Source: Rhizophagus irregularis (lineage: Eukaryota > Glomeromycota > Glomeromycetes > Glomerales > Glomeraceae). Taken from it: a stretch of DNA of 64,000 bases. A model generated the notes under the pieces. It saw only the letters and a list, made by a program, of their open reading frames with translations. It was not told the DNA's origin and made no database searches. The stretch is taken from contig NC_089445.1 of NCBI RefSeq assembly GCF_026210795.1, forward strand, positions 3,534,001 to 3,598,000. The letters run 5' to 3'. Below are positions 1-61,252 of the stretch, piece by piece; position 1 is the first letter of the stretch; the number at the start of each line of letters is the position of its first letter. The translations under genes were made by a program, and so were the position numbers.

Positions 1-2680
1 ATTTGAGATATTCGAATCTTTCCATATACGAATTTTGACGATTTCGACTAAACGTAAGCGAAGATAATTAAAAAGCGATTGGATCATTCTTTAACGAAAA
101 GTAGATCCATTAAAAAATTGATTTGTAAATAAATCGTTTGTGTTTTGTATCGGTAATCGTGGTAATCGTCTTATGCGATTCAATATATACATATTGTTAA
201 TTGTAATTCCATGTCTTAACCGTCGTTGATTTCGGCGTCTACGAATAGTAAGACTAGCGTAGGACGATAAATTGTTAGATGTTGTGTCTGAATAGTCGCA
301 AGGAGCACATTCCATTTGAGTTGCATTTATTGTTCGATTTGTTGGTTGTTGTTCATTATCCATTATAAAAATTATATATATTTTTAAAATTTCTTGAAGT
401 GTTCTCTCGAAATAGTTTATTAAATTCTTTTCTTTTATTTTTTTTTTCAAAGTGAAAAATAATTTTGCAGTCTCTTTTTTTTTATATATTTATATATAAA
501 TATATATCATATAAGAATTTTTTAAAAAAAAAAATTGGAAAGAAAAGTGCTTCTACTTGACGTTCAAAGAAAATAAAAAATATATAAAATAAAAAATTCG
601 TGAAAGCAGGAAAAAATAAAAGGAATTTTTTTTTTCGTTGTTAAAAAAAAAATATTTAGTTAGAAGGTTTACAGTATTTATAAAAAAAGATCTGGCTGAT
701 TTTTAATCATACTATAAAAAACCAAAATTATTTTTTTTCTTCGAATTTGTTATATAGATTAGATATTAAATTTTATAGTTATTCAATATGCATGGAATTT
801 ATTATTGATGAACTACTTATACGAGGCCTCCCGGATATAAAATTTATCCGATGGAAAAGAGTTTTCTTTAATTATGGGGGGTAAATGATTGGCTGAAAAT
901 AAGCCGCGAATAATATACGTTTTTTGTCCTATAATGGAAAGTTTTAGTCGTAGTGGCACCCAAATGACAGCTTATGCCGATTATAAATAATTCTTTTAGA
1001 AATGATCGACAAATGTGTCGCCAGTTTACAAAATGTGCGAAAAAGACACGGATGACCAAAAATTAGTCACGTGAATTTCGTGACATTTTTGTAGGGTACG
1101 CAGGGGAAGTCGTTTTTTACAAAATCTTTTTCTTTTCAAAAAAAAAAAACCTTAATAAACTGCTCTGCAATATTACTTAGAACGACAATCGAGGTTTTGG
1201 CTGAAAATTTTGACTTAAACGCGATTTTTTAAACAATAAATCGACTAATTGTAATGACAACACGTGATCCTAAATCCCATAAGGAAATCAATGTGCGGCA
1301 CATTTGCGCATATTCTTATATTGTTGAACATGATTTAAAATTTGAATTTCAAATACTGATGCACCCGGTACATTAGTTTCTCAATTAAAGAAATTGTGTT
1401 TGACTCTGACTAAAAACTGACCTAGAATTTCCAAATTCCAACAAATGATTCTTATTGATAGTATTTTTTTTTCTTTCATGATAAAGAAAAAATTTAATAA
1501 TATTAAAAAAAAAAATGTTTTCTTATAACATTAATTAATATAATAATTTATTTATTTATTTATTGACGAGCTTAAAAAAAGAAAAAAAAGAATTCTTTTT
1601 CTGGTTTATTAATTTTTTAATGTATACAGTTTTAATTTGAAATGTTACAAACAAAACCAATGTTAGATTGATAAATTTGGATAGTGCTTTTTTATAATAA
1701 TAATATTTGTTTTTTTAAAAGAAAATTATTTAAACCATAAATAGTTTAACATTATTGTTTATCATACTATTTAATTTCTAAACTCAATCGGCATTCGCAA
1801 CTCCAATTACTTACACATTACCAAATATAGTACAATGATTATTCTGTTTTTGTTTATTAGGACTATCATTACATAATGTAAACTTATTTATTTGTTAACT
1901 TTGTGTTCGGCCGATTTATTTGTTACTCGTTCCTTCTTAAATGACATTTTAATTCTATTTACAATTTTATTATTTTTTTTTTTGGTAACCTGAACAAAGA
2001 AAAATTATTTGGGGCGAACTAAATTTTATTTAAGCTTATTTTTTATTTTATTTTACGTAAAAAACTTTATTGTATAACAAAAATTTTTTTTATACAAAAA
2101 AAGCGAAGATCGGAGGGAAAAAAAAAATTTTTTTTATATAAATTAACCCTCTTTTGCGTTTAACCCAAATATTTTTTAACAATGAAAAAAAAGATTTTTC
2201 ATATAAAATATCCCTCTTTGCATTTAACCTAAATATTTTTTAACAACAAAAAAAAAATTTTTTAAAAAAAAATGTTTTTTTGTCTTGGTCATAATTATTT
2301 TTTTTTTTGAAAGTTTTGAAGTTTTTTAACTTCTCCTTTCAAATTTTTTTTAAAAACTCCCTTAACAAAAAATCTCATTAGTTCCTTTTTTTTATGTGAT
2401 ATATATTATATATATATCAAAAAAAAAGGAAGAAACCGATAGATTTTTGTTCTCATTTTGAAGAAAAAACAATATTCGAAAACTTCGTTTTTAATGAAGT
2501 GAGGGAACAACAAACGACAAAAACGAGATACACTTAGAAAGTGTTTTGATTTTAAAAAAAACAATTCGATTCGTTAAAAAAAATTTTCTAATTTTGTAAA
2601 TATTTTTAAATTATTTTTTATTTACGAACACTTAAAAAAACTTCTTGTACAAAAATCTAATTTTTTTTTAAAAAAAAGCA
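1..2680 (-). repeat. Dispersed repeat unit carrying small Arg-rich ORF, copy 1
   Basis: Aligned by eye, this stretch matches 13.9-15.8 kb in the same orientation, and 48.9-51.0 and 59.2-61.4 kb in the opposite one. Shared landmarks are the ORF at 91-363, the leader at 365-530, a block near 1600-1690 that matches 49020-49090 inverted, and the block 1905-2700 that matches 15290-15830. Indels in non-coding parts are frequent and of all sizes. About 840-1130 is less AT-rich and has no counterpart in the other copies I compared, so it may be an insertion. No transposase or terminal repeat was seen, so the spreading mechanism is unknown. Confidence 0.7.
91..363 (-). CDS. Small Arg-rich repeat-borne protein, MDNEQQ subfamily, copy 1
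   Basis: This encodes 90 aa of unknown function. The open frame extends 29 codons further upstream, but the Met of MDNEQQ is chosen because every copy of this subfamily starts there, just after a conserved AT-rich leader. In order it has an acidic/Asn-rich head, a Ser-rich stretch ending SSYASLTIRRRR, a strongly basic core (residues ~43-54) that could be a nuclear localisation or nucleic-acid-binding signal, and a conserved tail with QNTNDLFTNQFFNGS. No signal peptide or membrane segment is visible. It carries a three-codon in-frame duplication (RLPRLP) absent from other copies. I recognise no named family. Expression is not shown by the sequence. Confidence 0.55.
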   Translation of the reverse strand: MDNEQQPTNRTINATQMECAPCDYSDTTSNNLSSYASLTIRRRRNQRRLRHGITINNMYILNRIRRLPRLPIQNTNDLFTNQFFNGSTFR

Positions 2681-2683
2681 AAA

Positions 2684-3520
2684 ATGAAACAACCATCGGT
2701 TACTTATTCCGCCACTAAATGGACCGATACGTTGACAATATTTTCTTGATTAAAATCAACACAGACGAAACGTTAAGTGAACTAAACGATTAATAAAAAA
2801 AGAAAAAGATCGTGACTTTCGTTTTGGACCAAGCTACCTTAGATTACGGAAAGTAAATACCCTGATACATAGAAATGACTCAATGGAGGGAATTTCTCTT
2901 CGAGCGAAGACGAATTAATTGCAATGTATAAAACCGTAAAATATTGGACGAGCCCCGAAGGCATTCCTGAAGAAAACATTCACGTAATAGTTAAAGCCCC
3001 TAGTACGCTCCTCTAAATACTTATAAAAGTACTAACTTATCTATTTAATAGACAATTTCAGAATTTTTTTCGCCAGGTATTTCCAAACTAACGAAAGAGT
3101 GTGAAAAAATAATGGGGATGATACATACTGGTTCTTTCGTAGAGAGCATTTCCTATAGGAGCAGAGCTCGAATCATAAAACATCAGAAATTATTACGTAG
3201 TAGAAAAGTTGTCCAACTATGAGTTCGTGACTTAGGGGTCACAATTGGCTTATTTCATCACGTTCCGACAATGACTATAAATTCTGTAATCCGCAGTTGA
3301 TTTCTGATAAGGAAGGTCATCTAGCGTGCACAACTACGATCGAAAAAAGTATATTCATTCATACCTTAATTGCGAAGTGTCTCGTCCGGACACTTCTTTC
3401 AAACTGCGATAGGTTGGTTTCTTTTTAACGAGTCCATATTATATATAGCTGAAATAATTTTGATGCTCGGAGAAAATAGGACGATGGCTTAAAGTAAATC
3501 TTACATCACGTTACACAAAG
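2684..3520 (+). pseudogene. Decayed Crinkler (CRN)-like effector gene
   Basis: The stretch opens with an ATG and a QPSVTY...KWTDT segment that is also found at 15.8, 16.0 and 13.0 kb. From 2740 the frame shifts into a sequence resembling the ubiquitin-like N-terminal region of Crinkler proteins: VKIN/IKINTDET-like start, KKEKDRDF, and the closing YWTSPEGIPEENIHVIV (ends near 3000). A good intron follows: donor at 3002, TACTAAC branch site near 3032 and acceptor TTTAATAG just before 3052. A downstream open frame then runs to about 3222, with further decayed coding to about 3520 (GLFHHVPT, SIFIHTLIA). Stops and frameshifts interrupt it several times, so it is not functional. In this family, secreted or intracellular effectors act in host or fungal cells; that is family knowledge only. 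Confidence 0.6.
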
Positions 3521-5982: not shown

Positions 5983-6183
5983 TTAAGGGAAAGAAGATCC
6001 GTTAAAAAATTGATTTACGGATTGATTGTTCGTATTTTGTATTGGTAATCTTAATCTCCCAACACGGGTCGTATCAATTCGTCTTTCTCGACGATCATTC
6101 CGCCTTCGAATAATAAGACTAGCGTAAAATGAAGGAGTACGTTCAATAGTTTCGGTAAAATTGGATATATGAGATTGATTCAT
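5983..6183 (-). CDS. Small Arg-rich repeat-borne protein, MNQSH subfamily
   Basis: A 66-aa ORF starting at the Met of MNQSHIS; the open frame runs 20 codons further upstream through poly-Phe/Lys low-complexity DNA that looks like leader. It shares with the MDNEQQ subfamily the YASLIIRRR core, a run of Arg, LPIQNTN and the ending NQFFNGSSFP, but has its own head (SNFTETIERTPS). It is therefore a diverged sister subfamily. Two broken copies lie at 46.9 and 57.3 kb, both truncated by the same TCGCTAG stop region. This is the only open copy of the subfamily in the window. Function unknown; the basic core suggests nucleic-acid binding or nuclear entry, as an inference only. Confidence 0.5.
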   Translation of the reverse strand: MNQSHISNFTETIERTPSFYASLIIRRRNDRRERRIDTTRVGRLRLPIQNTNNQSVNQFFNGSSFP

Positions 6184-9337: not shown

Positions 9338-9399
<62 letters not shown>

Positions 9400-13299: not shown

Positions 13300-15813
13300 T
13301 TTTTTTTTTAAAGTTAGGCTTTCCCTATAGGCTATATATTACAATGTTATGTAACGTAAATGAAAAAAAAATTTTTTTTTATGAAATTTATAGAAAGCTT
13401 ATTTATGATGTTATTAATTAATGCATGATCAAAAACGTATTACGTGGCCCATTTTCATCCAATCATTCGGTCCTGTGACCGACATAGCTACTCCTCTATC
13501 CAATAACTATTTAATACAGCCACACCGCCACACAAAAATTACCACCGGTAATAATAGAAAATTTGAAATTCAATAATAATACGAAGTTTCTTTAAAATTA
13601 TTAGCTAAACCAAGAAAACCTAGTTGAAATCTTAAACTATTACAAATAAGAGTGAGTATTATAATACGTCATCTTTTGAACAAAAAAAAGAATAAAGAAA
13701 AACCATCCACAATGCAAAGGTGGCTTGCTAATTTATTATGTTTATTTATAGATTTTAGGATTTTTAACCATGCTTTTTTTTTATAGTCTCTATAAATAAA
13801 TGTAATACAAATGTTGATCATTATTAACGAATGAGTGAATCGTACATAATTTTTGCCGTTAACGTTATTATCGATAAAAATGAAATTAACTTCGAAAGTG
13901 AGTAGGTTTGCCAACGATATTTTAGATATTCGAATATACGAATTTTGACGATTTCGACTAAACGTAAGCGAAGATAATTAATAAGCGATTGGATCATTCT
14001 TTAACGAAAAGTAGATCCATTAAAAAATTGATTTGTAAATAAATAGTTTGTGTTTTGTATCGGTAATCGTCTTATGCGATTCAATCTATACATATTGTTA
14101 ATTGTAATTCTTAACCGTCGTTGATTTCGGCGTCTACGAATAGTAAGACTAGCGTAGGACGATGAATTGTTAGATGTTGTGTCTGAAAAGTCGCAAGGAG
14201 CATGTTCTATTTGAGTTGCATTTATTGTTCGATTTGTTGGTTGTTGTTCATTATCCATTATAAAAATTATATATATTTTTTAAATTTCTTGTTTATTAAA
14301 TTCTTTTCTTTTTTTTTTCTTCAAAGTGAAAACTGAATCAAAAATAATTTTGCAGTCTCTTTTTTTTATATATTTATACTAAATATATATCATAAAAAAA
14401 AAAAAAAAATGGAAAGAAAAGTGCTTCTACTTGACTTTCAAAGAAAATAAAAAATATATAAAATAAAAAATTCGTGAAAGCAAAAAAAAATATATTTGCG
14501 TTAGACACCAAAGATAGGGTTATTTATATAAAAAACAGCAATAAAAAACAAAGATTATTTTTTTCCTGATTCCTGATTTTCACGAAAAGTTCCAGAATAA
14601 AATAAACTGTTCCGAGCCACATTAAATAATTTGGCGTAACCTGTCACACATTTATGAAAAGCCACTATCCTATTGAAATTCCCAATAAGGAAATCGAAAA
14701 ATTAAAGCTCCGCACATGACCAAAAGCTTTTGTGTGCGTATTGCGCACATGATTTAAAATCTGAATTTCAAACACCCAATTAATAAAGAAATTGTATTGA
14801 ATTCCAAATTCCAACAAATGATTTATTTTTTTCTTTCATGATAAAGAAAAAAATTTAATAATAATAATATTAAAAAAAGAATAATTTAATTATTTATTTA
14901 TTGATGCACTAAAAAAAAAAGAATTATTTTTTCCGGTTTATTAATTTTTTAATGTATACAGCTTTAATTTGAAATGTTACAAAGAAAAACAATTTAAGAT
15001 TGATAATTACCATTGGTGAAATAGGTTGATAAACCAAAAAAAGTATCTTCTGTTCTTCGTGAGATTGCAATTATAAAGGGTTGGGACTGTGGGGAATAAG
15101 TGATGGTACTAAATTTGGTTAGTGCTTTTTATAATAATTTTTTTTTTTTAAAGAACAATTCAAACATTAAAAGTAAGTCATCAGTTTATTACGTACGGGA
15201 TGTACTAATTTAAGTGATTTGGCTTTCTTTTCTTTCTTTTGAAATGTTTATTAATCATTACATAAATGTAAACTTATCCAGGTGACCGACTTATTATTGT
15301 GTTCGGCCGATTAAATGATCATCCCTAAGAGTTTCTGGGTCACATTTTTAATATAACACAAGGAATTATTTTTTTTTGGTAGCCTGAACAAAGAAAAATT
15401 ATTTGAGGCGGACTACATTTATTTTAAGCCGTGATTTGCTTATTATGTTACTTGTAACATTCTTTGTATAAGTTATAGCCTATAGGGAAAGCCTAACTTT
15501 AAAAAAAAAACTAAAAAAAAAAAAATTATTTACACTCTTTCAAATTTTTTTAAAAAATTTCTTTAACAAAAAATTCTTTTTTATGTGATATATATATCAA
15601 AAAAAAGGAAGAACACGCTAGATTTTTGTTCTCACTCTGAAGAAAAAAAACAATATTAGATACACTAAGAAAGCGTTTTGATTTTACAAAAAAAACAATT
15701 TGATTCGCGAAAAAAAAAAATTTTCTAATTTTGTAAATATTTTTTTTATTTACGAACACTTAAAAAAACTTCTTGTACAAAAATCTAAATTTTTTTTTTA
15801 AAAAAAAAACAAA
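13300..15813 (-). repeat. Dispersed repeat unit carrying small Arg-rich ORF, copy 2
   Basis: This matches 1-2680 in the same direction and the 48.9-51.0 and 59.2-61.4 kb segments inverted. Shared parts are the ORF and its 3' flank (13860-13990), the leader (14260-14400), the 14820-15060 block, and the 15290-15810 block. A short inverted pair (GTTAGGCTTTCCCTATAGGC near 13315, its complement near 15478) brackets much of the unit and could mark its ends. 13600-13660 also matches 24340-24400 inverted. Confidence 0.65.
14001..14258 (-). CDS. Small Arg-rich repeat-borne protein, MDNEQQ subfamily, copy 2
   Basis: 85 aa, starting MDNEQQPTNRTINATQ like copy 1 and ending NQFFNGSTFR at the same stop. 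It differs from copy 1 by missing His-Gly after the Arg core and by lacking the RLP duplication; all length changes are whole codons. The DNA around it has many non-triplet indels compared with copy 1. The basic core (TIRRRRNQRRLR) is intact. Function unknown. Confidence 0.55.
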   Translation of the reverse strand: MDNEQQPTNRTINATQIEHAPCDFSDTTSNNSSSYASLTIRRRRNQRRLRITINNMYRLNRIRRLPIQNTNYLFTNQFFNGSTFR

Positions 15814-16105
15814 AATGGAACAACCATCGGTTACTTATTCTACCACTAAATGGACCGATACTGGTGTTATCTCTTCTTTTAAATAACAGCTTGATATTGT
15901 TCAAGAGAAATTACGTGAAGAAGTCGAACAAAAAGAAAATTAAGAAAAAGTTCTTCACATTCCAAACAACTATCTCAAAAAGCTGCCCAACAAGCATAAC
16001 AATCTCAACGCGGAAGAATGTTACAACCATCAGTCACTTATACTGCTAAATGGACCGATACTGAAGTTATCTCAAAAGATTCCAATTTTGGATAATTATT
16101 CTCTT
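15814..16105 (+). pseudogene. Remnant with two QPSVTY-KWTDT motifs
   Basis: The ATG at 15814 opens MEQPSVTYSTTKWTDTGVIS and stops after 23 codons. A coiled-coil scrap (IVQEKLREEVEQK) follows, then a second ATG at 16018 with LQPSVTYTAKWTDTEVIS. The two ATGs are 204 nt (68 codons) apart, so the ancestral protein probably had two homologous segments joined by a coil. The start context is the end of the dispersed repeat leader, shared with 2684. KWTDTEVIS may be the beginning of a SAM domain. Stops show it is dead here. Confidence 0.5.
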
Positions 16106-19480: not shown

Positions 19481-22400
19481 ATGGAAGAAGTTGAAACTCA
19501 AAATAATACTTTAACAATAGAAGTTACAAATGACATTCCATCAGAAACGAAGGATGAAGAAATTGAAAAACATAAGAAATCAATTTATCGAATTATTGTT
19601 TCTCAATATATCAATGAAGAATATGGTTCAGAAAATTATGTTGTTACTTATAGTCGTAAAGATAAATCAGTTCTTGGATGGTCAATTGACATTGAAAAGA
19701 ATAGTCCACAACAACCCGATGTTTATTTTAAGGTTGATCAAATAGACGATCTCTTTAATAGTTTATGCGATTATGCACAACTAAGTAAAAAAATCTTGTC
19801 AATATATTATTCTGGGAAGCATTGTAAGTATTTACTTTGACTCAAAATAATAGTAATTTAATTTTATGTTTAATTAATAATTTATATTGTAATTGTAGGG
19901 TTGATTGATTTAAATAATGATCGTACTAGTAGTGACCGATTTCTTGAACTAAAGAATCCCATTTCTTGTGGTGTGGGAGAATTTGGACATAATGCTATTG
20001 GATTCCTTCCTAATGGTGATTTAATTCATGTATCATCAAGTGATCACAAAATTTACAAGTACCGTTTAATAGATAAACCAAAAAATAAAGTTCCTTGGGA
20101 ATGTTCTCAAATTATTGATATAAAAATTCCCAAAGATTTAATAAATGGTCAAATTAATTTGAAATATTGTCCTATATATCGAACAAAGTTATTTCTAATT
20201 GTTAACTATAATAAAATGCTTCAATTTGATTTATTGACAATGAATTTAGAAAGACAATACCATGAATTTCCTTCGAATCCTTATCCAGTAATAATGGATA
20301 AAAATCAAACGTTATTGGCGATAGAATCAGCATGGAAAACTTACATGTATTCAATGGAAACCGGAATGTTGATTTATAAGTGTGAGTATTACTTTTACGA
20401 TGCATATAATTTTGATATTCATATATTCTAATTATAATTTATTCACAGATGATGGGGTACCAATCAAATTCATAACTATAAAAAATAATTCCGAAAGATT
20501 ATTCGTTAGGCGTGGTCATGAACGTAAACTTGTAGATCCTTATTACCAAGTTTATGATGAAATTAATATTTCCAGTGATTTTAATGATACAAGTGTGATG
20601 ACTAACTTAAATAGAAAAATTTTCATTGATAATGGTAATGTTTGTATCACAAATGGAATTGATGAAAATAAATTGCAACAATTATCAGACAAGACCACAT
20701 ATAGAAATAGTATTTATACTTTATCTACCTTTAAAATTATACAAAGTATGCTTAATGAAATTATTAACCAAGTGGACATTAAAAAGGTTGCACCATCATA
20801 TCCTGAAGAGATTGTGTTAAAAGATGAAGTTGAAATTGAAGATATCGGACTTTGTAAAATTGTTCTTTATAATGAAAACAATTATGATCATATGAGAATT
20901 GAAACAAATGGATACAATCTAGAAGTACCAATATGTATTTGTGGTATGCTCTCATTTAGACTATTAAATAACCAGGATTGGGTAATAATTGATATGAAAG
21001 GAATCAGTATTTATACATTCGGTAATGGGTTTACATATCGATACTTTTGGAATAATAATGAATGGAATGATATTTATGAAAACTTCAAAAAAGATTGTGG
21101 CAATCATTACGATATTAATTTTACTAACACACACTACAAGTCACTTATTGAAAGAATTCTAAGAAATGAATTTGATGATTCAAAACATTCAATACCTATC
21201 ACAAAATTTGTAGAGGACCATGAAAATGAAATAATTGAAGATATTATAAATGATAATTTTGTAACGCCGAAATTTGAAACTAAAATGTTAGAAAAAGCAA
21301 TTGAAGAAAATTGGAATGTTATTGTTTATAAAATTGTTGTAAATAATTTATCACCAAGATTTGGAAATGAAATATTAAAAATAGCAATCAAAAAAAGATG
21401 CGATCATATTGTTCAACAAATTATTGAACTAATTCAAGATTATTCCGAAAGTTACATGACTATCATTAGTTTAAACTTACCAGAATTTTGTGATCATTAT
21501 CCTGATTACATAATCAAATATATCTCACGCACTTCTTTTATATTATCTCCTTATTGTTATAACATTAAATATTCAAAAAATACTTCACTTTATTCATACA
21601 CAGATTTTATTTATATTAAAGAATCAAATATGAAAAATAACTATTTTAAGTCTATTTCAACAATATATGAATGGTTAATTCAGCATTTAAGGATAGAGGA
21701 AGAAATCCAAGTAATCAGTTTCATTGTTCCTTTTCCTAAAATTTGTGTATATCAAGATGACTCCAAAAATGATGATGAAACTGAAAATAACCACAATATT
21801 AAATCAAAAATAATAACAATATTAAAAAAAATGATCACAGGACTAAAAATAATCATGATGATACCAAAAAGTAATAGTATTTGGAATAAATTTTTAAATA
21901 AACCAAAATCTATTCTATTTTGCAATATAGATAGTAATAATTTTTATAATTGGTGGAATTTTGCTGCAATTATAGATTTTAAGTGGAAAACTTTTGGAAG
22001 AATTTACTATTATCTGAACTGGTTATTTTATACAGTTTTTATGTTTGTTATGCATTAGCTTCTACATTAGAACAAAAATCTATCCCTGATCTTTTTTTTA
22101 CACTACTTTTTATAATTTCCATTATATTTGGCTCAATATTTTTAATTTTTGAAATTCGATATCTTTTATGGGATTATAAAATTTATTTAAATGATATATG
22201 GAATTTATTTGGTAAGTAATTTTTATTTAATTGCTCTTACATTAAAACAAAATTAACTTGTATTTAATCATCAATAGATGTAGGGGCATATCTTTTACCT
22301 ATTATAACATCCATTTTTTGGCTTATTAATAAAAGCCAACCACCTTGGCTTATGGCAATATCTATTATATTATTGAGTTTTAAATTTTTATTATTTTTTA

Positions 22401-23681
22401 GAGTATTTAAATCGTTTGGAATTTATTTTGCAATAATAATTGGTGTTGCGAAAAAAGTTTTTCCATTTTTAGTGCTCTTATTTTTTATAATACTTGGATA
22501 TGCTCAAGCATTTTTCATTATTCTAAGATCAAATAGTATTAATGATGATAATAATCCACAGAATCTTGCAACTAAATATGATTTCGTTAATTCGGATGGA
22601 ACTATAAATAATACTACATCAATAATTCAAGAACCTGATTCAAATACAAATTTATTTAATTGGTTCCCCACTTCACTTTTAGCAGTATATAATCTTCTCA
22701 CTGGTAATAATTTATTTTTTTATTTATTTACCAGTTTTTTTTAAAAAATAAAATTAAATATTTTAATAACTTTTTGATATAATTATAGGTGATTCCGGAT
22801 CATTATCATCATTTACTTATCGTGAACATTCTATTATGACCATTCTATTGGCTACCTTTACATTTTTCACAGTAATCTACCTTATGAATTTATTTATTGG
22901 ATTACTCAACCTAGCAATTGATGATTATAACAAAGAAGAAGAGTTTTTACTTCAAAAAGCACAAGTAACCATTTTTTACATTGTTAATTATATCAAATTT
23001 TATTTTACTAAATAACTAACACTTCACTTTCTTTTAAAGATTATTATGGAGATTGAAATATTTTATATGTTACCATGGCAACGTAATAACAACAAATGGT
23101 TTCCAGATTGGATGTAAGTATTAATTATATCGTATATAATCTGTTAATATTAAAATTTTTTTTGTACATTTTATTATTAATAACATATTTTAATTCTTTT
23201 AAGTTATTATGATATACCTGTGACTGAGATTCGTAAATTAATTAATGCAATTGATAATGAACAGACTGTGTTTAATTATCCTCCAATTATCAGTGAGAAA
23301 TTGAGAAAGTTAGTGGTACTTACTAATGAAGAAGAACAAAATAATAAACTAGAGAAGCAAATAGAACAAACGAAAGATGAATTTACAAAACAAAATGTTG
23401 AGCTTAAACAACATATAAAAGAAGAGCTTACAAAACAAAATGTTGAACTTAAACAACAAATGGAACGTATTATGAAATATATTGGAATAGAACAAGATAA
23501 TGAGAATGAGGAAGAACAAGATAATAAAGAACAAGATAACAAGGAAGAACAAGACAATGAACTAGAGCAAATAGAACAAACGAAAGAAGAGCTTCCAAGA
23601 CAGAACGTTAGTCTTAAACAACAAATGGATAAACTTAGTCAACAAATGGAAAATATTATGGAATTATTAAAAAAAAACTAG
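19481..23681 (+). CDS. TRP-like ion channel with beta-propeller N-terminus (one-base frameshift)
   Basis: Seven exons: 19481-19823, 19899-20381, 20449-22211, 22278-22703, 22789-22964, 23040-23113, 23204-23681, all GT-AG. They join to about 1247 aa if one base is restored: exon 3 stops at TAG 22056-22058, but from the T5 run at 22036-22040 the other frame continues exactly as expected. The N-terminus looks like a WD40-type propeller (GEFGHNAIGFLPNGDLIHVS), followed by a helical region (~640-700). Six membrane helices follow: S1 ~790-812, S2 ~820-850, S3 ~863-880, S4 ~888-912, S5 ~915-945, S6 ~1017-1045. The pore loop has LLTGDSGSL near 1003-1011. The C-terminus is a Gln/Glu-rich coiled coil. 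The protein is expected in a membrane conducting cations. The frameshift may be real or an assembly error. Confidence 0.8.
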
Positions 23682-23774
23682 ACTTTGTCCCATGCAATTT
23701 TTTTTTTTTGTACATCAAGAAGGTTTAAAGGAACATTTTTTTTATAAGATTGATAATGTAAACAAACACTTTCT

Positions 23775-24224
23775 TTAAATAAAATTAATAAATATGAATT
23801 TCTCTTTATGCTGCAGTTCTATTAAAATGATCTGATAAAATTTTGATCGCCGAGTAATCAATGAGATAATTGTCTCACGTAATAGATAAAATGTTTCTAT
23901 TGGAAAAAAGACCCAAATAAATCCTATACGAACAATAATTGTACAGTTCATTGCAGTTACGAAGTAAAGTGAATATATTAATTGCCTGATGCGATGCATA
24001 ATCTTATAATACAAAACTATCTGTAAACCTATTCTATATGCTCTATGTAAATTATATATCTTGCGTTGGAATAAGAGTAACTGCATGACTTGTACATCTG
24101 ATGACAGATTCTTTGCAATAGAAAACAAATGGAAGATAATTATTCGATAAATAGAGTGTGTTCTATACTTATTTTTTCTAATGGGAATAATCCCTCTTAA
24201 TAGGACGTAATTGTACTTTTGCAA
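23775..24224 (-). other. Minus-strand 149-codon ORF, doubtful
   Basis: The longest frame is hydrophobic in places (FIWVFFPIETFYLL). A second frame on the same strand also reads like protein (SHAVTLIPTQ, IDYSAIKILSDHFNRTAA) but has stops. Two plausible frames suggest a decayed gene fragment rather than a live gene. It lies between the two channel genes, opposite in direction. No family recognised. Confidence 0.25.
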
Positions 24225-24931
24225 GCAAGGTATGCAATGAGTTTTTGTTATGGTAATACTGTAAATTAATAGATGATTCTCTCATAGGCACATGATTTGA
24301 CAAGGGTCCTAACCTTTTATGTTCAAAAGATGATGTATTATAATACTCACTCTTATTTGTAATAGTTTAAGAATTTAACTAGGTTTTCTTGGTTTAGCTA
24401 ATATTTAAAAAAACTTATTTTTTTATTATTATTGAATTTACAGGTTGAAATGGATCTTTATTATTCTTATACAATTAGAGAATTAGTTAAATTAATTATT
24501 ACAATAAATTCTTTTTAAATCCTAGTGTTGGCGGAACATTGGTAGTGCCGGCCGGCATTAAATCACGTGACTTAGAAGTATCCGTTATCCGGTTCGGATA
24601 AACGAGTTCACTAATTACTGTAAAATATTTGCCCGTCATTCATAATGAACAGTATCATGTACAACAAAATTAAAGCCGAAAAGGACCATAATAATTCCAA
24701 ATGTTTCATTATATCTCCGCATTTTTTTTTAAAAAAGGAAAAATCCGTGGTGATTTTTGATCTGCACTTTTTTTGAAACCGAAATCTTCATTTTAGATCG
24801 ACAAACTTTAATTCTCCTGTATATGAATGAATGAATAACATGTGTACTGAAGTTACCGAAATTGTATTTAAATAGATCATATACTGATGCATTAATTTTT
24901 TTTCTTAGGCATAATATTTTATAATTTAATT
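24225..24931. other. Upstream region of the second channel gene
   Basis: 24340-24400 is an inverted match to 13600-13660. A GC-richer patch with CCGGCCGGC and an E-box-like ATCACGTGACTT lies at 24548-24572, ~360 bp before the start codon, and could be regulatory; this is inference from motif only. Confidence 0.4.
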
Positions 24932-27900
24932 ATGTCTAAATATTATGTTGCTCTGAGTCAAGATGGACAAGAGGTTGCGATCTTCGACTCAAGTAAGAAT
25001 TTTTAATAATTTAATATCTAAAAAAAAGAAAGTTAAAAATTAATTTTTGTTTATGAATTACTTTTTAGCCAAATTGGAATTATCAACTTGCACAATCGAC
25101 AGATTAGATAAGCAAAGAAAATTAGCTTACGAACCTTTCCAAGTGCTTAATAGCAATTTATTTGATGGTATAACTTGGTCAATTTCAATTTCTAATAAAT
25201 CAGCGAATGGAGAAGTCTTAATTGCATTATCTTGCTTTAATAAATATCGTTATTTGATGTCAGAAGATCAAAATTCTGCGCAATATTTTGAATCCATAAA
25301 AAGACAATCTATATGCAATATAATAACAGATATAACAGATACAACAGATACAAGTGACACTAATGAGACTGTTGAAACTCTAACTGAAATGGAAAATGGG
25401 GAAATGGCAAGCTTTGATTCTACTTGGTTATTTTCCACTTTAAATAAAGAAAGAATTCGCACTACAATTGATCATCTTGGTGGTATAGTAAAGTTTCTTA
25501 GTCCGTCAGATCCCAAAAAGCAGACTCTTATTATCATTCATGATTATGGTATTACAAAAACTTTAATCCCTATAAATTATCGTCAATATAATAATAATTG
25601 GAACTCGTTAAGAAAAACATTTTTTAATAAATTAATTGCCAAGAATTCAAAAGGTACAATTGAATTTTATTTCCCAATGTCAATTTCAAAACAAATAAAA
25701 GCTTGCATTGAAGATAGACCACAATTAAATATATTCAATAAAAATATCAAGAATAATTATCTTTTCTTACAAGATTCTAAATCAGATAAATTAAATATGC
25801 TTGAATGTTACAATTTAGAGGGTGGTGGATTAATTAAATCGTTTCAAGTAGATTCTGATGAGAATATTAAAGAAACTTTAAATTCCAATTTTAATAAGGC
25901 CTTTAATTCTATTAAAAATTATATGATAATTGAAATTTCGAAAAATGAAAAATTATTGGCTTATAATAGTAAATATCACCAAAATCATATTACATTATTT
26001 TCAATGGAAAATACTTTGAAAATTTGTACAAAGGAATTTACAAATATAAATGATATAATTTATATTCAATTTATTTGCAACGATGAAAAATTATTGATTA
26101 TTGGAGAGCGAGAGGTTAGAGGAAGTCATGTAATTGAAAATTCAGACGAGATTGAAGTAGTTAAAATCAGAAAAAAAAAATCAATGAATACTACTGTACC
26201 TATACTTATAATTTGGGATTTATTTTCTTCAAATTCGGTAGAAGATTCTATCACGATCATTCATGATTCTTTAAATTCGTTAGATATCTTTCGACATTAT
26301 CATAATTATGTTAATTCTAATGGAAATACGATTTATATAGATAAAAAAGGAACTGTTAAATCTTTATTAGATCATCCGGATCTAATCGATGCTCTTAAAA
26401 AATCTATGAATTATTTTTTAAAACCCTTAGATATAATCGTTGCACAAGAAATAAGTGGAAGTATGAAAAAACATGCGATTTTTCACTTAGACAATATACT
26501 GGATAGTCATACGACAGAGAATGATGCTATTGTTATCTACAGCGAACCATGGATAAGCAATAAAAAATGTTCTCGAATATCAGTATTTCTTAATGAAGAT
26601 AAATCTATTCAATTAATCATTGGAGTTTTTTCTGTACAAGTTTGGAGAAGATTATCAGAAGGAGATAATCAAGTATCGCGTCTTGAATATATTTGGATAG
26701 GTAATAAACAAAAAATTGAAATTAAATCTTTATTAGTAGAAAGAAATGAATTTTTACTTGAATTTACATTACACGACGAAAAAGAGGATCTACCAGATAT
26801 TATAAACAAAAAAGACAAAATGCAAATACATTGGCCACATAATGTCTTAATTCTTAAAGATGCATGTGTTGCACTTGAATATTGTCATTATCTTATTGAC
26901 AATCCTGTAAGTCCAAGGAAAGGACTTTTATTCGAAGAATTTCGAATTCAAGTACAAAATATTGTTAAAAATTTTATTAAATATAATCCTCTCATTTTTC
27001 AATTAACTGATATTAGATATGACATAATGGGAAATCTTATACGAGGAAATTGTGTTTCTATTATCAAAAGAATTTTATTTATCAAAACGGAGAATTTTAA
27101 AAGTTCAGAAGGTTCAAAAGCAATGAAGGCAAAGATGAATAATCATTTACATTTCCCACGTTTATATTCTTGGGAGTCCAATTCTCCAAAAAAGAGTGAC
27201 TTAGAAGTGGCTATCGAATCTATTACTGGGGTACATAGAAAAGAATCAATAATTGTTGGATATTTGTTAGATTACTATTCTGATAATGCAATGAAAAATA
27301 CTGGATGGATGATTTCGGTCACACAGATTTTACCACTCTTATACGACCGTCACCTGGATTATTATGTTAAGGAGTTATTTTATAAACCATGTTTTGGAAC
27401 GAGACAGTCATATATTGATGATTCTTTAATATCTTCATATGAATTGCGGAAAGCCCAACAGAAAAATATACATTCGATAAATATTCGACAAGGACTATCA
27501 AGAAAGCCAAGTGCTATAATTCCAGGATTTAAAAAAAAATTTGAAGATATTAAAATGTATTTAAAACTAAAGTAAGTTAGATTCATTAATTACTATGGTT
27601 TTGATTATAAGGAGCCTTTTTTTAAAATTTAATATTTTATTTATTTTATCATTATTAAATATAGCTTAATTAGCCTTAATCGTAAACACGATCCATGTTT
27701 GACAAAGTTGAATGTCGTTCCACTTCCAGATTTTTTTACTTTTCCTCCTAGTACTTCAACAAATAAAGAAGAGAAATTTCTTGATCATTATTTAGCTTGG
27801 CGTATTTTGAAAAATGTTGTTTGGCCTCATATATATGTTGAATTAGTAGATTCGCAATATTCTCCTTTTCATCGCGCATTAATGCGTGATAATAGGATAA

Positions 27901-48660: not shown

Positions 48661-50404
48661 TTTAAACTAAATTCAAATTAACATTAGATTAGAAAATTGT
48701 TATAATAGATCTGCGGTGGTTGGAGATCCTGCAAATAATTACTAAAAGACTTGACGTAATATGTACCAAATTGTTATATGTACCAAATTGTTCTTTATGT
48801 GGAATAAAAGAATTACTTAAATATAATAAGGACATATCCGTTGACCTTTTTTTTAAAAAAAATAAATAAATAATATATAATAACTAGGGGTTATAATACC
48901 TGTAAAATAACCGTTATTATAAACTTTAATACTAAAAAAAGTTCGGAATTGTAGTCTCACGAACAGAAGATACTTTTTTTGGTTACCAACCAATATTATA
49001 ATTGGTAATTATCAATCTAGAATTGTTTTTCTTTGTAACATTCAAATTAAAGCTGTATACATTAAATAATTGATAAACCGGAAAAAAGAATTCTTTTTTT
49101 CTTTTTGAGCGTGTCAATAAATAAATAAATAAGAAAACATTTTTTTTTTTAATATTATTATTATTAAATTTTTTCTTTACGCGAAATATCAAAACAATCA
49201 TCATTTTCTTTGTTCCTATAATGGAAAGTTATTGAATACCGTAAACGATAGTCGATCCTAATTTCACCAAAAGGGAATAGTCAGAAATCGAAAAAGTTAA
49301 CTGTTATATTAATTATTAATTAAACTGCATGCAATCAAGTATTTTTTTTTTTCATGATGAAAAATTATATTTTAATATATATATGTATATATAATATGGT
49401 ATTATAAATAAAGTAATTTGATGTTCAAGTAATAAACCAATATTTGTGACTACTGGACTAGACGCGAAAAAAAAAAAAATTATTTTGGTTGTTTTTTTTG
49501 TTCTTGCGCATATTTTTCAATACCAGCCCAATACCGATGCCTGGATTAGTAGTCATCTGAAACGGTTAAATTTGATTTCTTTATTTTGATATTGACATTT
49601 TATGATAATTAATTGGTTAAAAATTTAAAATTTTACTAATAAACTAAAATAATTAAAATGATAAAATATTGAATAAAAACTTTATAGGAAAACAAGAGAA
49701 ATTCCCCCGAAAAGAAAGTATCATATCATAATTCGTCACTCCGATCTTCTCAATTATGCTATGTACATATTGTATGTCATTTTGGTACAAAAACAAAAAA
49801 AAAATAACAATCCGATAATCAAAACAAACATGAAAGTGGGGAAAAAATTTTTTATTGGTGAGTATACCTTTTTCGTACCACTGTAATAAATTCCACTAAA
49901 TTATAAATTATATAATATATATATTTAGAATACCATTGTATTTGTATATAAAAAATATAAAAAGATAAATTTAATTTAATAAAATGAATTATTATTGACA
50001 TAGTAATATAAATATTTTTTGCCTGTAAATATTTTTACATAAATAAAGTACTAGAATATTATCCGAAGGACCGAACCCTTTTTTTTTATATTATTTATAA
50101 TAAAAATTTTTTTTAATACCGACCAATGATCTAGTAAAAAGTGAGGAAACGCCGAGGATCAGAAAAAATAATTTAATTTTTTTATATAAATAACCCTCTT
50201 TGATGTCTAACGCAGATATTCAAAAATTCCTTTCCTTTTATTTTCCTGATTTCATGAATTTTTATTACCAAATTATTTTTTAATAGACTCGTTTTTATAT
50301 GATATATATTTATGTATAAATATATATAAAAAGAGTGCAAGATTATTTTTGATTCAGTTCTCACCTTGAAGAAAAAAAAAAAGAATTTAATAAACTATTT
50401 CGAG

Positions 50405-50555
50405 AGAACACTTCTAAATTTATTTCAAAAAACCAAATTTATTTCAAAAAATTTTATTAAAAACCAAATTTATTTCAAAAAATTTTATTAAAAACAAATT
50501 TATTTCAAAAAATTTTATTAAAAACAAAATTTATTTCAAAAAAATTTTAAAAAAT
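50405..50555 (+). repeat. Tandem ~31-bp leader repeat before the small ORF
   Basis: Four to five units of AAATTTATTTCAAAAAATTT(TATTAAAAACC) directly precede the ORF at 50570. Other copies have one or two diverged units, so it has expanded here. Confidence 0.85.
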
Positions 50556-50569
50556 ATATATTTTTTACA

Positions 50570-50836
50570 ATGGATAATGAACCAATAAATCCGGAACGTG
50601 CTCCTTCAGAAATTCCATGCGATAACTTAAACACTTCTTGCAACTTTTCAGATACAACTTCTAATAATTCATCGTCCTACGCTAGCTTTGCTATTCTTAG
50701 ACGCAGAAATCAAAGACGTTTAAGACATGAAATTACAATTAATGTGCATATATGGAATCGCATAAGACGATTACCTATGCAGAACACAAACGATTTATTT
50801 ACAAATCAATTTTTTAATGGATCCACTTTCCCCTAA
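50570..50836 (+). CDS. Small Arg-rich repeat-borne protein, MDNE subfamily, copy 3
   Basis: 88 aa, starting MDNEPINPERAPSE after an AT-rich leader ending TTTTTTACA. It has a six-codon expansion in the head (NLNTSCNFSDTTS) not found in the 61-kb copy, the core SSYASFAILRRRNQRRLR, then ITINVHIWNRIRRLP and the tail QNTNDLFTNQFFNGSTFP. Compared with its partner at 61004-61252 all length differences are whole codons. Upstream are the 31-bp tandem units. Function unknown. Confidence 0.6.
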   Translation: MDNEPINPERAPSEIPCDNLNTSCNFSDTTSNNSSSYASFAILRRRNQRRLRHEITINVHIWNRIRRLPMQNTNDLFTNQFFNGSTFP

Positions 50837-51480
50837 AGAATGATCAAATCGCTTATTAATTATCTTCATTTACGTTTGTCGAAATCGCAAAATCTGTATA
50901 TGGCAAGATTCGAATATCTCAAATATCGCTGGCAAATCTACCCACTTTCGAAGTATCGATCTAATAATATTAACGGCAAAATTTATGCAAAAAATACGTA
51001 AAACGGCAACTGAACCTGTACGATCATTCATTCGTTATTATTTCGCAACAAATATTATGTTATTTCTTTTTTCAATTATTTATTTACCCTTTATTCAAAC
51101 AAATAATTCAAAATTTTTACTACCGTATTTTTCTATTTTGCTTTTGGGCGAAAAAATTTTATACTACTATTATTAAGAATTGTTTGTATAAGTATATATG
51201 TTAAAAACTGAAATTATTTATTTTATTTTTTTCTCTTGATATATTTATAGTGAAATGTTTTACGGGATATCAGTTTATCACTACTCCCTTTAATGTTGAC
51301 ATTATTTTCACTAAATATGAAATTCCTTTTTTTTTTATAGCTTATCCAAGTATTAAATATTTATTTTTTATTTTACTTAGAATTATTTAAAATATGTTTT
51401 ATAATCTTCTCGTGTTATATCTAGTACGGCGTAAAGTGTGCTTTGCGTTTTTATTCATTTATTCATTTATTTACTATAAA

Positions 51481-52036
51481 AAAAAAAAAAATTTAATTTA
51501 TTTATTTATATAATATGAAAATTTTTTATTAAACTATTTATGATAAAAACTATTTACCATAGATTTTATTAAATTTGTTAATTGTTAAGAACTCCACTAT
51601 TCTCAAACATAATAGTGAAGTTCTTGTCTATTGTCAGAACTCGAGAGTATAGAACATTTATAATAAGAATTTAAGAATGTTGTAAAATAGACGAAGATAA
51701 AGATATGTATAATCACCTTGTTGATTGGGAATTTAAGGAAAAAATTGTTTTCTGATATTGATAATGTAATAGGAGATATCCAAGATGATGTTGTATAGTT
51801 GTTGGTAGTTTTAAGATTTTAATATTTTCCTGCAAAATAAATTTGATAAATTGAATTATTAATTCTAAAAATTCTGATTGGTCAATTTTTATGATCACAT
51901 GACCTCTTTTTTTAACACACAAAGTTGACAAAAATTATTGTTTAAAATTTTATATCAATGAATTCCTCCTGACTATCCATAAAATAAAATAAATAAATAA
52001 ATAAATAAATCGTTTAAAATTTTATCCTCTTACAAA
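51481..52036. other. Spacer between duplication and hAT remnant
   Basis: Includes a (AAAT)n run at ~51984-52010. A short inverted pair (GAACTCCACTATT / AATAGTGAAGTTC at 51589-51625) forms a hairpin. No gene. Confidence 0.4.
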
Positions 52037-55499: not shown

Positions 55500-57324
55500 A
55501 TGTGATCTGGTAACATAAATCATCAAATGAACATTCATCCAATTGGTCCGGAATTTCTAATAATAAAATGATTAAATTGATAAACAAAACAATAAGATAT
55601 AAGTTAATAATGATAATATGGGGTAAAAAAAATAATAAAATAATAAAGTAGAATAAAAATACGCAGATCACGGCTTAAATTTAGTCCCAGATAATTAGGT
55701 CTCAGGGAACGATCATTTAAAAAGGAAACGATTAAGGCATATAAATCACCTGAACCGACATTATACACATCACCTGATTAGGCAAAGTTAACAAATAATA
55801 AGGCATATTAAAAAAGAAAAAGTGGCTCAATGTTTGAAATTTTCTCACCTTTTTTTTCCTAATTTATAAAGTTCGGATCAATAAATATTTTAATGATAAT
55901 CCTAGCTTTGCAATCAACTACGCAGTATGCAGCTGTGCATGTTGCGACTGTTGCGTGTTATGATGAGATAGCAATAATAATAATTTATCGTAGTTATTAT
56001 GGTCATTATATTATTAAGGTTGTTTCATTATTCGCGATAAAATTCACATCTTTACTTCAAAACCTTCAAAACCTTCAAAACGTAATTTTTTTTATAAAGA
56101 AATCGACATGAAAAAAGCAGGGACATCCATTGCTAAAAAAAAATTTTGAAAACTAGATTTCATCAATTATTCATAGAAATTTTTTTATTTTATTTTAATT
56201 AAAATAATAAATCAATAATTTTGTCATCTTTTTTTTTTAAAAAAAAAACCCTTTTTCTTTTCTTTCCAAAGAATCAATAATAATACTTGATAAACAAGAA
56301 ATTCTAAAATGTTCCTAATTAAAAACTCTAAAAATAATGAACGAATTAAAAAATGAACGAAACCGAAACAAAATAAAAAAAATATATATCCATTATATTC
56401 TTATTATATTCTATTATATCCTATTTTTATTTTAATTTTATTCCATTTAATTTTTTTTTTTTTGATGGGTAAATTTTTTCTGTGGAATATTATTTTTTTT
56501 ACTCTTTTTGTTTACTATATTTGGTAATGTTTTTGTCATACAAAATTATTATCGTTTATTATTAAAAAGAAAACTTTAAGAAAATTTTTCAATTGAAAAA
56601 ATCGGAATATACAGTAAAATTTGTACATAAAAATTGTTCGAAATTGTTCTTTATCGGAATCACTTAAATAGGATGATTTGTTTATATTTATTCACTGATA
56701 TTGTAAATATATATATAAAATAGTAGATAATAGATTATATTAAATAAGGTTTAGGGGTTAAATTTTGTGATTTTTGTCCATCTTTCCAAAACCAGAATAT
56801 TTTTTTTTTAATGGTTATTACATTATCCTGCGTAATTTACGTTATTGATTTCCATTTACGTATTATTATATGTGAGGTGGAAATTACCGAAAGAAAACAA
56901 TAATGTTTAGAATGTTTAGAATGTTTAGAATGTTTAGAATGTTTAGAACAATCGATTTTATCTGTTTAACTATTTATTTTTCTTATAAAATCTACTTTAT
57001 TTGTTTTGATTATTTATTATTATTATTTTACTATATATAATATATATAAAAAAAATCCTTTTTATTGTATATACAAAAAAAAAAAAAAAAAAAATTCTTC
57101 ACGTTACATTATGCATAAGTTACAGGGAAAGTCTTAATTTTTTTATGCAACTTTTAAAAAAAAATTTTATATACTGTATATTAAAAAAAAAAGTTATAAT
57201 TAAAATTAGAACTTTATAAAATAAGAAAAAAAAAATAATTTTTTTATATTTTTTTTTAACAAGAATCCTTTTTTTTCTGCTTTGACGAATTTTTATTTTT
57301 TTTTTCAGCTAGAAAACCAATTTT

Positions 57325-57490
57325 CGCAATGGAATCAATACAATTATGCTCATAAATCCAATTTTACCGAAACTATTGAACGTACTCCTTCAAACGTTCG
57401 CTAGTAGTCTTATTATTCGAAAAACAGAATTAGAATTGGATACGAGAGATTACCAACACAGAATACAAACAAATCCATTTTTTTCCTCTA
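57325..57490 (+). pseudogene. Broken MNQSH-type small Arg-rich ORF, copy B
   Basis: Same decay as at 46.9 kb: the SNFTETIERTPSN stretch is followed by VR and TAG TAG. An ATG (57330) exists but is in the wrong frame and stops after eight codons. Because both copies share the break, it predates the segmental duplication. Confidence 0.75.
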
Positions 57491-59411: not shown

Positions 59412-59569
59412 AATATATGAGACATCCAATATTGAAATCAGTATTAGTAGCATTAATTCCTATTGGTCACCATAGTATTCCTAATGACCGCAGTTATTGG
59501 ATAGCAGATAGGGGATATCGGTCGGAGACTGATATCTCTATTCCCCATCCAATAACTATTTATTATAAC
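59412..59569. mobile_element. ~157-bp insertion with internal hairpin, absent from copy 1
   Basis: The corresponding point in copy 1 (about 49127) lacks it. Within it, AGTTATTGGATAGCAGATAG (59493 on) pairs with the complement of CTATTCCCCATCCAATAACT (59540-59559). Its sequence is also recalled by 13480-13510 (CTATCCAATAACTATTTA). It is therefore a small MITE-like insert that arrived after the duplication or was lost from copy 1. Confidence 0.7.
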
Positions 59570-61003
59570 AAACATTTTTTTTTTTAATAATATTATTAGT
59601 AAATTATTTCTTTACGCGAAATATCAAACCAATCAACATTTTCTTTGTTCCTATAATGGAAAGTTAATTCTGTGTGCAGTTTAATTAATAATTAATATAA
59701 GTTTCGATTTCTGACCATTCCCTTTTTGGTATCACTGTAGGATTATAGCTGCAATCTTATTAAATCAATTGACTCAGAACTTATCTAGAATAAATTATTC
59801 CAATAAATGATCTTAATAGTATTCTTTTTTTCTTTCATGATGAAAAATTATATTTTAATATATATATATATATATACATATGGTAATAATGGTATTATTA
59901 ATAATGTTCAAGTTAATAAACCAATATCTGTGGCTTAGAGGCGAAAAAAAAAAATTTTTTTATTTATATTATTGTAAAAAGGGGTAAGTTTTTTTTTACA
60001 TCTTCTTGCGCATATTTTTCAATACCAGCCCAATGCCGATGCCTGGTGGTTGCCTGATTAGTGATCACCTGAAACGGTTAAATTTGATTAAATTGACATT
60101 TTACGATAATTAATTACTAGAATGACAAAAATATCCAAGATACTGTAAACTAAAATAATGAAAATGATTTATTATATAATTAGAAACATTTTAAAACTTT
60201 TACCATTTTCTCCTCTGCTCTCTCATGTGAAAAGATAAAATGTTAAATAAAAACTATAGGAAAACAAGAAAAACTCCCCGAAAGGAAAGTATCATCATAA
60301 ATCATTTTCTCTCAAATATTGAACACAAAAAAAATAATAATAATACGATAATTTTTTTATTGGTTAATTGTAAATCTTATGTAATAAAAGATTTCTAGAC
60401 AGTTGCGATTTTGTGTAAATTTTTTGTACCACTCACTAAATAAGAGATGTGTTGAATTCCACTAAATTAAATACCATGATTGTATATAAAAAGATAAATT
60501 TAATTTAATAAAATGAATTATTATTGACATTGTGATATAAATATTTTTTGCCCGAATATTTACATTATATATTTAGAAACTTTAGTAAATAAAAATTTTT
60601 TTTTTATATACCTCCCAATGATCTAGTAAAAAATGAGAAAACGCAGAGGATCAGAAAAAAATAATTTAATTTTTCTATATAAAATAACCCTCTTTGGTGT
60701 CTACCGCAAATATTCAAAAATTCCTTTTATTTTCATGATTTCATGAATTTTTATTTCATATATTTTTTATTTTCTTTGAAAGTTATGTAGAAATAATTTT
60801 TAAAAGACTCTTTTTTATATGATATATATTTATGTATAAATATATATATAAAATAAGAATGCAAGATTATTTTTGATTCAATTCTCACCTTGAAGGAAAA
60901 AAAAAAAATTTAATAAAACTATTTCGATCTAAATTTATTTCAAAAGATTATTAAAAACCAAATTAAAAAACCAAATTATTTAAAAATATATATAATTTTT
61001 ACA

Positions 61004-61252
61004 ATGGATAATGAACAACAACCAACAAATCAGGAACGTGCTCCTTCAGAAAATCCACGCGATTCAGATACAACTTCTAACAATCCATCATCCTACGCTA
61101 GTTTTGCTATTCGTAGACGCCGTAATCAACGACGTTTAAGACATGAAATTACAATTAATATGTATACATGGAATCGCATAAGACGATTACCTATGCAAAA
61201 CACAACCGATTTATTTACAAATCAATTATTTAATAGATCATCTTTCCCCTAA
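61004..61252 (+). CDS. Small Arg-rich repeat-borne protein, MDNEQQ subfamily, copy 4
   Basis: 82 aa starting MDNEQQPTNQERAPSENP, core SSYASFAIRRRRNQRRLR, then ITINMYTWNRIRRLPMQNT and the tail FTNQLFNRSSFP. The leader TATATATAATTTTTACA before the ATG is almost identical to that of copies 1 and 2 when inverted. It is the duplicate of 50570-50836; differences are substitutions and whole-codon indels. No domain recognised; basic core suggests nuclear or nucleic-acid-related role. Confidence 0.6.
   Translation: MDNEQQPTNQERAPSENPRDSDTTSNNPSSYASFAIRRRRNQRRLRHEITINMYTWNRIRRLPMQNTTDLFTNQLFNRSSFP

What the first reader, a model, noticed from the sequence alone, without database searches (positions are those of the whole stretch)
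91..61252. Repeat-borne family of small Arg-rich proteins with frame-preserving variation
Five open ORFs (91-363 -, 5983-6183 -, 14001-14258 -, 50570-50836 +, 61004-61252 +) share SSYAS-[LF]-x-I-RRR, an Arg-rich core, LP-[IM]-QNT and NQ-[FL]-FN-x-S-[ST]-F at a fixed stop. The four MDNE-type copies differ inside the ORF by several insertions or deletions, all whole codons, while the flanking DNA has many indels of other sizes. That contrast suggests selection on the protein. The family rides on dispersed repeats and I know of no description of it.
Basis: partly seen in the sequence, partly recalled or inferred. Interest (0 to 1): 0.85.

Follow-up and report, generated by a model that had tools for sequence, protein, structure and literature searches.

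The report
Huge family of Arg-rich tail proteins
The five small genes are real: they belong to a large, apparently undescribed family in a mycorrhizal fungus whose members keep an arginine-rich stretch and a shared end piece, and that end piece also sits on other proteins, which hints that one common partner recognises it.

Summary
All five ORFs are present. The genome, Rhizophagus irregularis by its protein matches, holds about 173 listed loci with the same C-terminal tail, roughly LPxQxTNDPFxNQFFNGSxF, usually behind an Arg-rich stretch. Of these, 166 entered the list without a stop in the match and 154 lie within 100 kb of another. Relatives occur in R. clarus, R. diaphanus, Glomus cerebriforme and, weakly, Funneliformis. 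No Pfam family or paper found matches.

Selection on the protein is supported. Inside the ORF 23 of 23 distinct indels are whole codons, against 37 of 114 in flanks. A frame-blind DNA search finds 9 of 9 complete MDNE-type copies open. Omega is 0.54, 0.38 and 0.32 in three sets, but codon positions vary about equally within subfamilies. Decayed copies exist, two in this window.

'Riding on dispersed repeats' is not supported: different subfamilies mostly share only coding sequence.

New: the tail also ends proteins with other N-parts (MEQ-type exon, F-box-like, one C31 gene). Best reading: small, basic, intracellular, probably nuclear nucleic-acid binders that dock a common partner by the tail. 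Partner and expression are untested.

The parts
91..363 (-). intact family ORF, MDNE type, 90 aa
   Evidence: translation; and 87 genome matches; frame kept
5983..6183 (-). intact family ORF, MNQS type, 66 aa
   Evidence: frame kept
14001..14258 (-). intact family ORF, MDNE type, 85 aa
50570..50836 (+). intact family ORF, MDNE type, 88 aa
   Evidence: AlphaFold2 model
50669..50767 (+). Arg-rich stretch of that ORF, predicted as one long helix (residues 34-66; mean pLDDT of the 10-residue blocks 64 to 85)
   Evidence: Arg columns conserved in 78 members
50771..50833 (+). conserved C-terminal tail of that ORF (LPMQNTNDLFTNQFFNGSTFP), loop plus short helix (residues 76-83)
   Evidence: omega 0.25 for the last 24 codons of the MDNE group
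61004..61252 (+). intact family ORF, MDNE type, 82 aa
46814..47078 (+). decayed MNQS-type copy: frame disrupted, end of the tail lost
57258..57488 (+). decayed MNQS-type copy: in-frame stops and shifted frame, end of the tail lost
15827..15991 (+). relic resembling the MEQ-type N-terminal exon of longer family members, two stops inside (E 0.003)

Best explanation
The five ORFs are working members of a large, tandemly duplicating gene family of Rhizophagus that makes small, strongly basic, intracellular proteins. SHOWN: an N-terminal part of variable length, an Arg-rich stretch, and a conserved C-terminal tail (I-x-x-L-P-x-Q-x-T-N-D/N-P-F-x-N-Q-x-F-N-G-S-x-F) with reading frame kept by selection; about 173 loci, mostly in clusters; the same tail behind several different N-parts. 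INFERRED: the Arg-rich helix takes the protein to the nucleus and binds nucleic acid, and the tail is a docking peptide for one common partner, so that paralogues and tail-bearing proteins with other N-parts (F-box-like and others) compete for or recruit that partner. Turnover is by birth and death: tandem copies arise, most stay open, some decay.
For: Copy number. Selection: whole-codon indels 23/23 against 37/114 and 14/14 against 29/139; omega 0.54 and 0.376 for two subfamilies (2 delta lnL 6.4 and 11.4), 0.25 in the MDNE tail (11.6), 0.32 for 78 members (349); conserved Arg columns use both CGN and AGR codons; 9 of 9 complete MDNE copies open in a frame-blind search. Relatives in other species: R. 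clarus, R. diaphanus, Glomus cerebriforme, and Funneliformis geosporum at E 0.049. Intracellular and basic: in the 61 of 78 members to which a start Met could be assigned, median pI is 11.5, and 1 of 61 has a hydrophobic N-terminal stretch by a simple cut-off. Two-part shape. Tail behind other N-parts: 14 MEQ-type exons followed by a tail exon, 8 pieces of an F-box-like family on C22 followed by one, and the C31 gene behind P0126, whose end is 84% identical over 68 bases to the window copy, running past the stop, while two weakly similar neighbouring ORFs lack the tail.
Against: No transcript or protein evidence was available. Within subfamilies variable sites are spread evenly over codon positions (16/14/17 and 16/14/13), and omega of the MDNE N-terminal part is 0.85, not different from 1; in the MNQS group the N-terminal part is instead the constrained one (0.24), and the tail run there did not move from its starting values. 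The 78-member set is saturated (tree length about 64), so its omega is rough. AlphaFold confidence is modest (mean pLDDT 66, pTM 0.26). Nuclear location, nucleic-acid binding and a partner are inferences from composition and motif only. The F-box-like label is below Pfam's cut-off in every match, and P0126's link to its neighbours is weak (E 0.005-0.008).
Confidence: 0.5

Rival explanations
1. Secreted or translocated nuclear effectors that act in the plant, analogous to the SP7-like family but leaving the fungus without a classical signal peptide.
For: Small, basic, lineage-specific, clustered, fast-evolving: a profile common among effectors (general knowledge). SP7-like effectors of the same fungus act in plant nuclei (PMC11333574, passages seen).
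Against: 1 of 61 members with an assigned start has a hydrophobic N-terminal stretch (true starts of two-exon members lie in an upstream exon and were not tested). The tail is shared with proteins that have an F-box-like N-part. No internal exact repeat longer than 5 residues in 78 members.
Confidence: 0.15
2. Selfish or mobile element: the ORF is a passenger or product of a dispersed repeat, with no host role.
For: High copy number, decayed copies, duplicated flanks of up to 1.9 kb between subfamily mates. Mutator-like elements lie near highly expanded gene families in this species (PMC8647823, abstract and passages).
Against: Different subfamilies mostly share only coding sequence. Clusters rather than dispersal (154 of 173 within 100 kb against about 36 expected). 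Around one copy (window 49570-51836) the listed inverted repeats are AT-rich and imperfect; other copies were not searched for element ends.
Confidence: 0.08
3. Cationic antimicrobial or DNA-condensing (protamine-like) peptides, in which net charge matters and the tail only stabilises the protein.
For: Median pI 11.5 and about 14% Arg in 61 members; four Arg columns are highly conserved; long basic helix predicted.
Against: The longest run of conserved columns is the uncharged tail. P0121 keeps the tail with a glutamine-rich stretch in place of the Arg tract.
Confidence: 0.1
4. Chance ORFs kept open by composition or by recent duplication only.
For: Flat codon-position spectrum within subfamilies.
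Against: Whole-codon indels 23/23; omega below 1 in both subfamilies and in the 78-member set; tail found in other species; decayed copies with shifted frames or lost tails exist for comparison.
Confidence: 0.02

Closest known systems
High-copy orphan genes of R. irregularis (class B, high copy number, in PMC8647823; abstract and passages seen)
   Same: Expanded, without a known domain, often tandem; this family would fall in that class.
   Different: That class is a bin, not a defined family; the passages seen name no family with this tail.
SP7-like effector family of R. irregularis (PMC11333574, passages seen)
   Same: Small AM-fungal lineage-specific family linked to the nucleus.
   Different: SP7-like proteins have a signal peptide and 6-11 hydrophilic repeats; neither was found in the members examined.
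F-box-like proteins (PF12937)
   Same: Two tail-bearing proteins (P0133, P0135) and 2 of 3 tail-less relatives have a weak F-box-like N-terminus.
   Different: The five window proteins have no such part, and every match is below Pfam's cut-off.
MATA-HMG / HMG-box expansion of AM fungi (Riley et al. 2014, seen only as a reference-list entry)
   Same: Large expanded family in the same genome; 150 PF00505 matches listed. P0126 looked HMG-like by eye.
   Different: P0126 and its neighbours gave no HMG match in Pfam; profile comparison probability 20%. No general link with the tail was found.

Membership tests
SP7-like effectors | N-terminal signal peptide | tested here: not met
   Simple hydropathy over the first 35 residues: 1 of 61 members at or above 1.8. 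SignalP was not available; upstream-exon starts of two-exon members not tested
SP7-like effectors | series of imperfect hydrophilic repeats | tested here: not met
   Longest exact internal repeat in the last 90 residues of 78 frames: 5 residues in one, 4 in five, 3 or fewer in 72; imperfect repeats judged by eye only
F-box proteins | F-box motif at the N-terminus | tested here: inconclusive
   PF12937 E 0.0014 (P0135) and 0.0039 (P0133), below cut-off, of 8 proteins scanned; 2 of 3 tail-less relatives E 0.012 and 0.051. Window proteins: none
MATA-HMG / HMG-box | HMG-box domain | tested here: inconclusive
   No HMG match in P0126, two neighbours or L084; hhalign E 0.0011 but probability 20%
Any Pfam family | match above curated cut-off | tested here: not met
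   Five window proteins: best E 0.077. 22 members: nine families, each in one member, best E 0.0015; cut-offs are not printed in that table
Dispersed transposable element | shared element ends or flanks in dispersed copies | tested here: inconclusive
   Flanks not shared between most subfamilies; element ends searched around one copy only, AT-rich imperfect repeats

The most novel reading that the evidence does not exclude
A lineage-specific modular docking system: some 170 proteins of one fungus carry the same short tail for a single conserved receptor. The small Arg-rich members act as a diversifying set of competitors or adaptors, while tail-bearing F-box-like and other proteins couple the same receptor to other outputs, such as protein turnover. 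New tail proteins are made by exon capture.
Probability: 0.2. Interest if true: 0.82.

Novelty: new variant of a known kind. Interest (0 to 1): 0.58.

Why it matters
R. irregularis is known for expanded orphan genes that account for part of its unclassified repeats (PMC8647823, passages). Here one such set is resolved into a defined family with measurable constraint, a clear two-part layout and a tail that also occurs on other proteins. That gives a concrete handle (one motif, one presumed partner) on what part of the accessory gene set does, and a warning that masking such loci as repeats can hide genes.

Tried and rejected
HMG-box origin: P0126 and the C11 ORF (L084) looked HMG-like by eye, but Pfam gave no HMG match, profile comparison was weak, and P0126's neighbours form a small tail-less group. 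Left as inconclusive; the C11 case rests on eye alone.

DNA-level constraint instead of protein: in the tail, synonymous identity is at or below the expectation from codon use in about half of the conserved columns and above it in the rest. Related copies are expected to exceed it, and the codon-use baseline included some upstream non-coding translation, so this test is weak. Ile, Asn and Arg columns 69, 74 and 85 are clearly more uniform than expected and remain unexplained.

C-terminal degron needing a free end: in C11:403920 and C22:2492667 the frame runs on past the tail before the stop, and four more fetched stretches (C11:2394602, C14:1539250, C22:2513745, C16:338086) end before any stop, so a free end is not required everywhere.

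Structure of P0133 (F-box-like plus tail): AlphaFold2 gave mean pLDDT 36, so nothing was concluded. No fold search was made with either model.

Tree of cores: no support values shown, used only as illustration; R. clarus members fall among several subfamilies.

Rows left out of the 173: six rows with E above 0.1 that were not seen elsewhere, C15:1839459 (tail disrupted), C23:2473300 (match stops short of the tail) and DNA-only matches. The list was merged by hand from tables and may hold a slip.

Viral relatives: one search failed and was not repeated, so that question is untested. Prokaryote and metagenome contigs were not scanned.
Full report
WHAT WAS CHECKED. The five ORFs read open exactly where stated, with lengths 90, 66, 85, 88 and 82 aa. 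The two C-terminal motifs hold in all five; the N-terminal motif has two small exceptions (SFYAS at 5983-6183, AILRRR at 50570-50836). A tail pattern finds these five places in the window and none in 100 Markov sequences of equal length. The window is G000:C17:3534001-3598000 of a 146.7-Mb genome in 32 contigs. Protein matches with OCT59 locus tags and 'Rhizophagus irregularis' names point to the species; the genome itself is unnamed.

COPY NUMBER. Searching that genome with the 82-aa ORF gives 38 matches, none with an internal stop. Searches with four more distant members give many more, and P0126, P0133 and P0078 add others. Merging by hand the matches that reach the C-terminus gives 173 distinct loci, 7 of them with a stop in the match by which they were entered. 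Matches are often partial, each locus has E at or below 0.1 in at least one search, and two or three loci show a stop in one search but not in another. Some weak entries may be false; the tool scores only the best candidates, so others may be missing. 154 of 173 lie within 100 kb of another, against about 36 expected at random. Main clusters: C22 2.02-3.39 Mb, C6 3.34-3.65 Mb, C17 3.38-3.90 Mb, with more on C15, C11 and C20.

SELECTION. For nine MDNE-type and seven MNQS-type copies on C17, distinct gaps inside the ORF are multiples of 3 in 23 of 23 cases, against 37 of 114 within 200 bp on either side (Fisher p 3e-10). Seven close pairs aligned separately give 14 of 14 against 29 of 139. Because the copies were first found as open frames, I repeated the search with DNA that includes flanks. 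The MDNE query finds nine complete copies, all open, one truncated relic and short pieces. The MNQS query, with the sequences read, gives eight open copies, four decayed ones and short pieces. So decayed copies exist, but of the complete ones few are broken. Codon models give omega 0.54 for the MDNE group (2 delta lnL 6.4), with 0.25 in its last 24 codons (11.6) and 0.85, not different from 1, in the rest. For the MNQS group they give 0.376 (11.4), with 0.238 in the N-terminal part; the tail run did not move from its starting values and is not used. A 78-member core gives 0.319 (349), tail 0.29, rest 0.39, but that set is saturated (tree length about 64). Against selection on residues, variable sites within the two subfamilies are spread almost evenly over codon positions (16/14/17 and 16/14/13). 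Constraint is clear on the frame, supported on the residues, and uneven along the protein; the AT-rich third positions of this genome may explain part of the flat spectrum (inference).

ANATOMY. In 78 aligned members, 38 and 40 fetched later, conserved positions lie in the Arg-rich stretch (R 71 of 77, 59 of 77, 71 of 77, 64 of 69) and in the tail: L 73 of 77, P 69 of 78, Q 77, T 64, N 66, F 62, Q 64, F 76, N 67, G 77 and F 72, each of 78. A start Met could be assigned in 61 of 78; for these, median length is 72 aa, pI 11.5 and Arg 14%; 46 of 61 have no Cys, and 60 of 61 have no hydrophobic N-terminal stretch by the cut-off used. For two-exon members that Met is not the true start. An AlphaFold2 model of the 50570 ORF with a 93-sequence alignment has a disordered N-terminus, a helix at residues 34-66 and a short helix at 76-83 in the tail; mean pLDDT is 66, pTM 0.26.

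THE TAIL OCCURS BEHIND OTHER N-PARTS. (a) Annotated proteins P0013, P0023, P0049, P0020 and P0024 join a MEQ/MEP-type N-terminal part to the Arg-rich and tail part. Fourteen exon pairs of this kind can be read from the tables: eight on C6, two on C16, two on C15, one each on C8 and C2; in one of the C15 pairs the tail itself is disrupted. Several such N-terminal exons have no tail match nearby. (b) On C22, eight pieces of an F-box-like family are followed at about 80-280 bp on the same strand by a tail exon (tables); five of the eight pieces include the stretch with the F-box-like motif. Database proteins of 183-324 aa join such parts (P0133, P0135, P0129, P0132, P0137, P0138). The family's roughly 600-aa members on C19 and C17 show no tail match. 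The F-box-like label is weak: PF12937 E 0.0014 and 0.0039 in 2 of 8 proteins, 0.012 and 0.051 in 2 of 3 tail-less relatives, all below cut-off. (c) P0126, one C31 gene, has another N-part; two ORFs 20-30 kb away are weakly similar to it (E 0.005-0.008, 27-28% identity) and lack the tail. Its end is 84% identical over 68 bases to the window copy, running past the stop, which looks like a capture at the DNA level. (d) P0121, from an unnamed source, has a glutamine-rich stretch in place of the Arg tract, with the same tail.

DISTRIBUTION. In three database searches (77, 73 and 18 matches) the names shown are only R. irregularis, R. clarus, R. diaphanus, Glomus cerebriforme and, at E 0.049, Funneliformis geosporum, whose partial protein P0145 shows the Arg tract and tail on reading. 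Other matches are unnamed metagenome or archive sequences. The five window proteins have no Pfam match better than E 0.077; 22 members have none shared by more than one member.

HOW IT MOST LIKELY WORKS. Shown: a protein family whose frame is kept, tandem birth and death, and a shared tail on several kinds of N-part. Inferred from composition: an intracellular, probably nuclear, nucleic-acid-binding helix. Inferred from conservation and spread: the tail docks a common partner, through which the many paralogues compete or cooperate. I put about even odds on this model as a whole. That these are real protein genes I hold at about 0.95.

LITERATURE. Ten searches of the held library showed no paper on this family in their listings; twelve locus tags of members or of gene models that overlap members gave no paper. 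PMC8647823 (abstract and passages) describes high-copy orphan genes as a class. PMC11333574 (passages) defines SP7-like effectors by features not met here. PMC7490403 (passages) concerns HMG-box genes. Riley et al. 2014 was seen only in a reference list. Supplementary files were not searchable.

Noticed in passing
window 19901-29648 (+): Run of long ORFs (176, 558, 153, 842, 211 and 151 aa) that probably form one or two intron-bearing genes, membrane-like in part by eye; no Pfam match at E 0.01 except a weak AAA_15 (E 0.0065).
   Followed up: partly
G000:C19 305-487 kb, C17 1.38-1.50 Mb, C22:2063594: An expanded family of roughly 600-aa open frames with a weak F-box-like N-terminus; on C22 shorter relatives are followed by the tail exon.
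   Followed up: partly
G000, 150 places listed: At least 150 HMG-box (PF00505) matches in this genome; 275 candidates, of which the tool scored 150.
   Followed up: no
G000:C17 copies at 3380105, 3400058, 3419663, 3435209: Each of these four MNQS-type copies has a fragment of the MEQ-type N-terminal exon 0.7-2.5 kb downstream on the same strand, as if an ancestral pair of genes had been duplicated together.
   Followed up: no
conserved columns of the core alignment (columns 69, 74, 85): A few conserved Ile, Asn and Arg codons are more uniform than codon use predicts, while neighbouring Arg codons vary freely.
   Followed up: no
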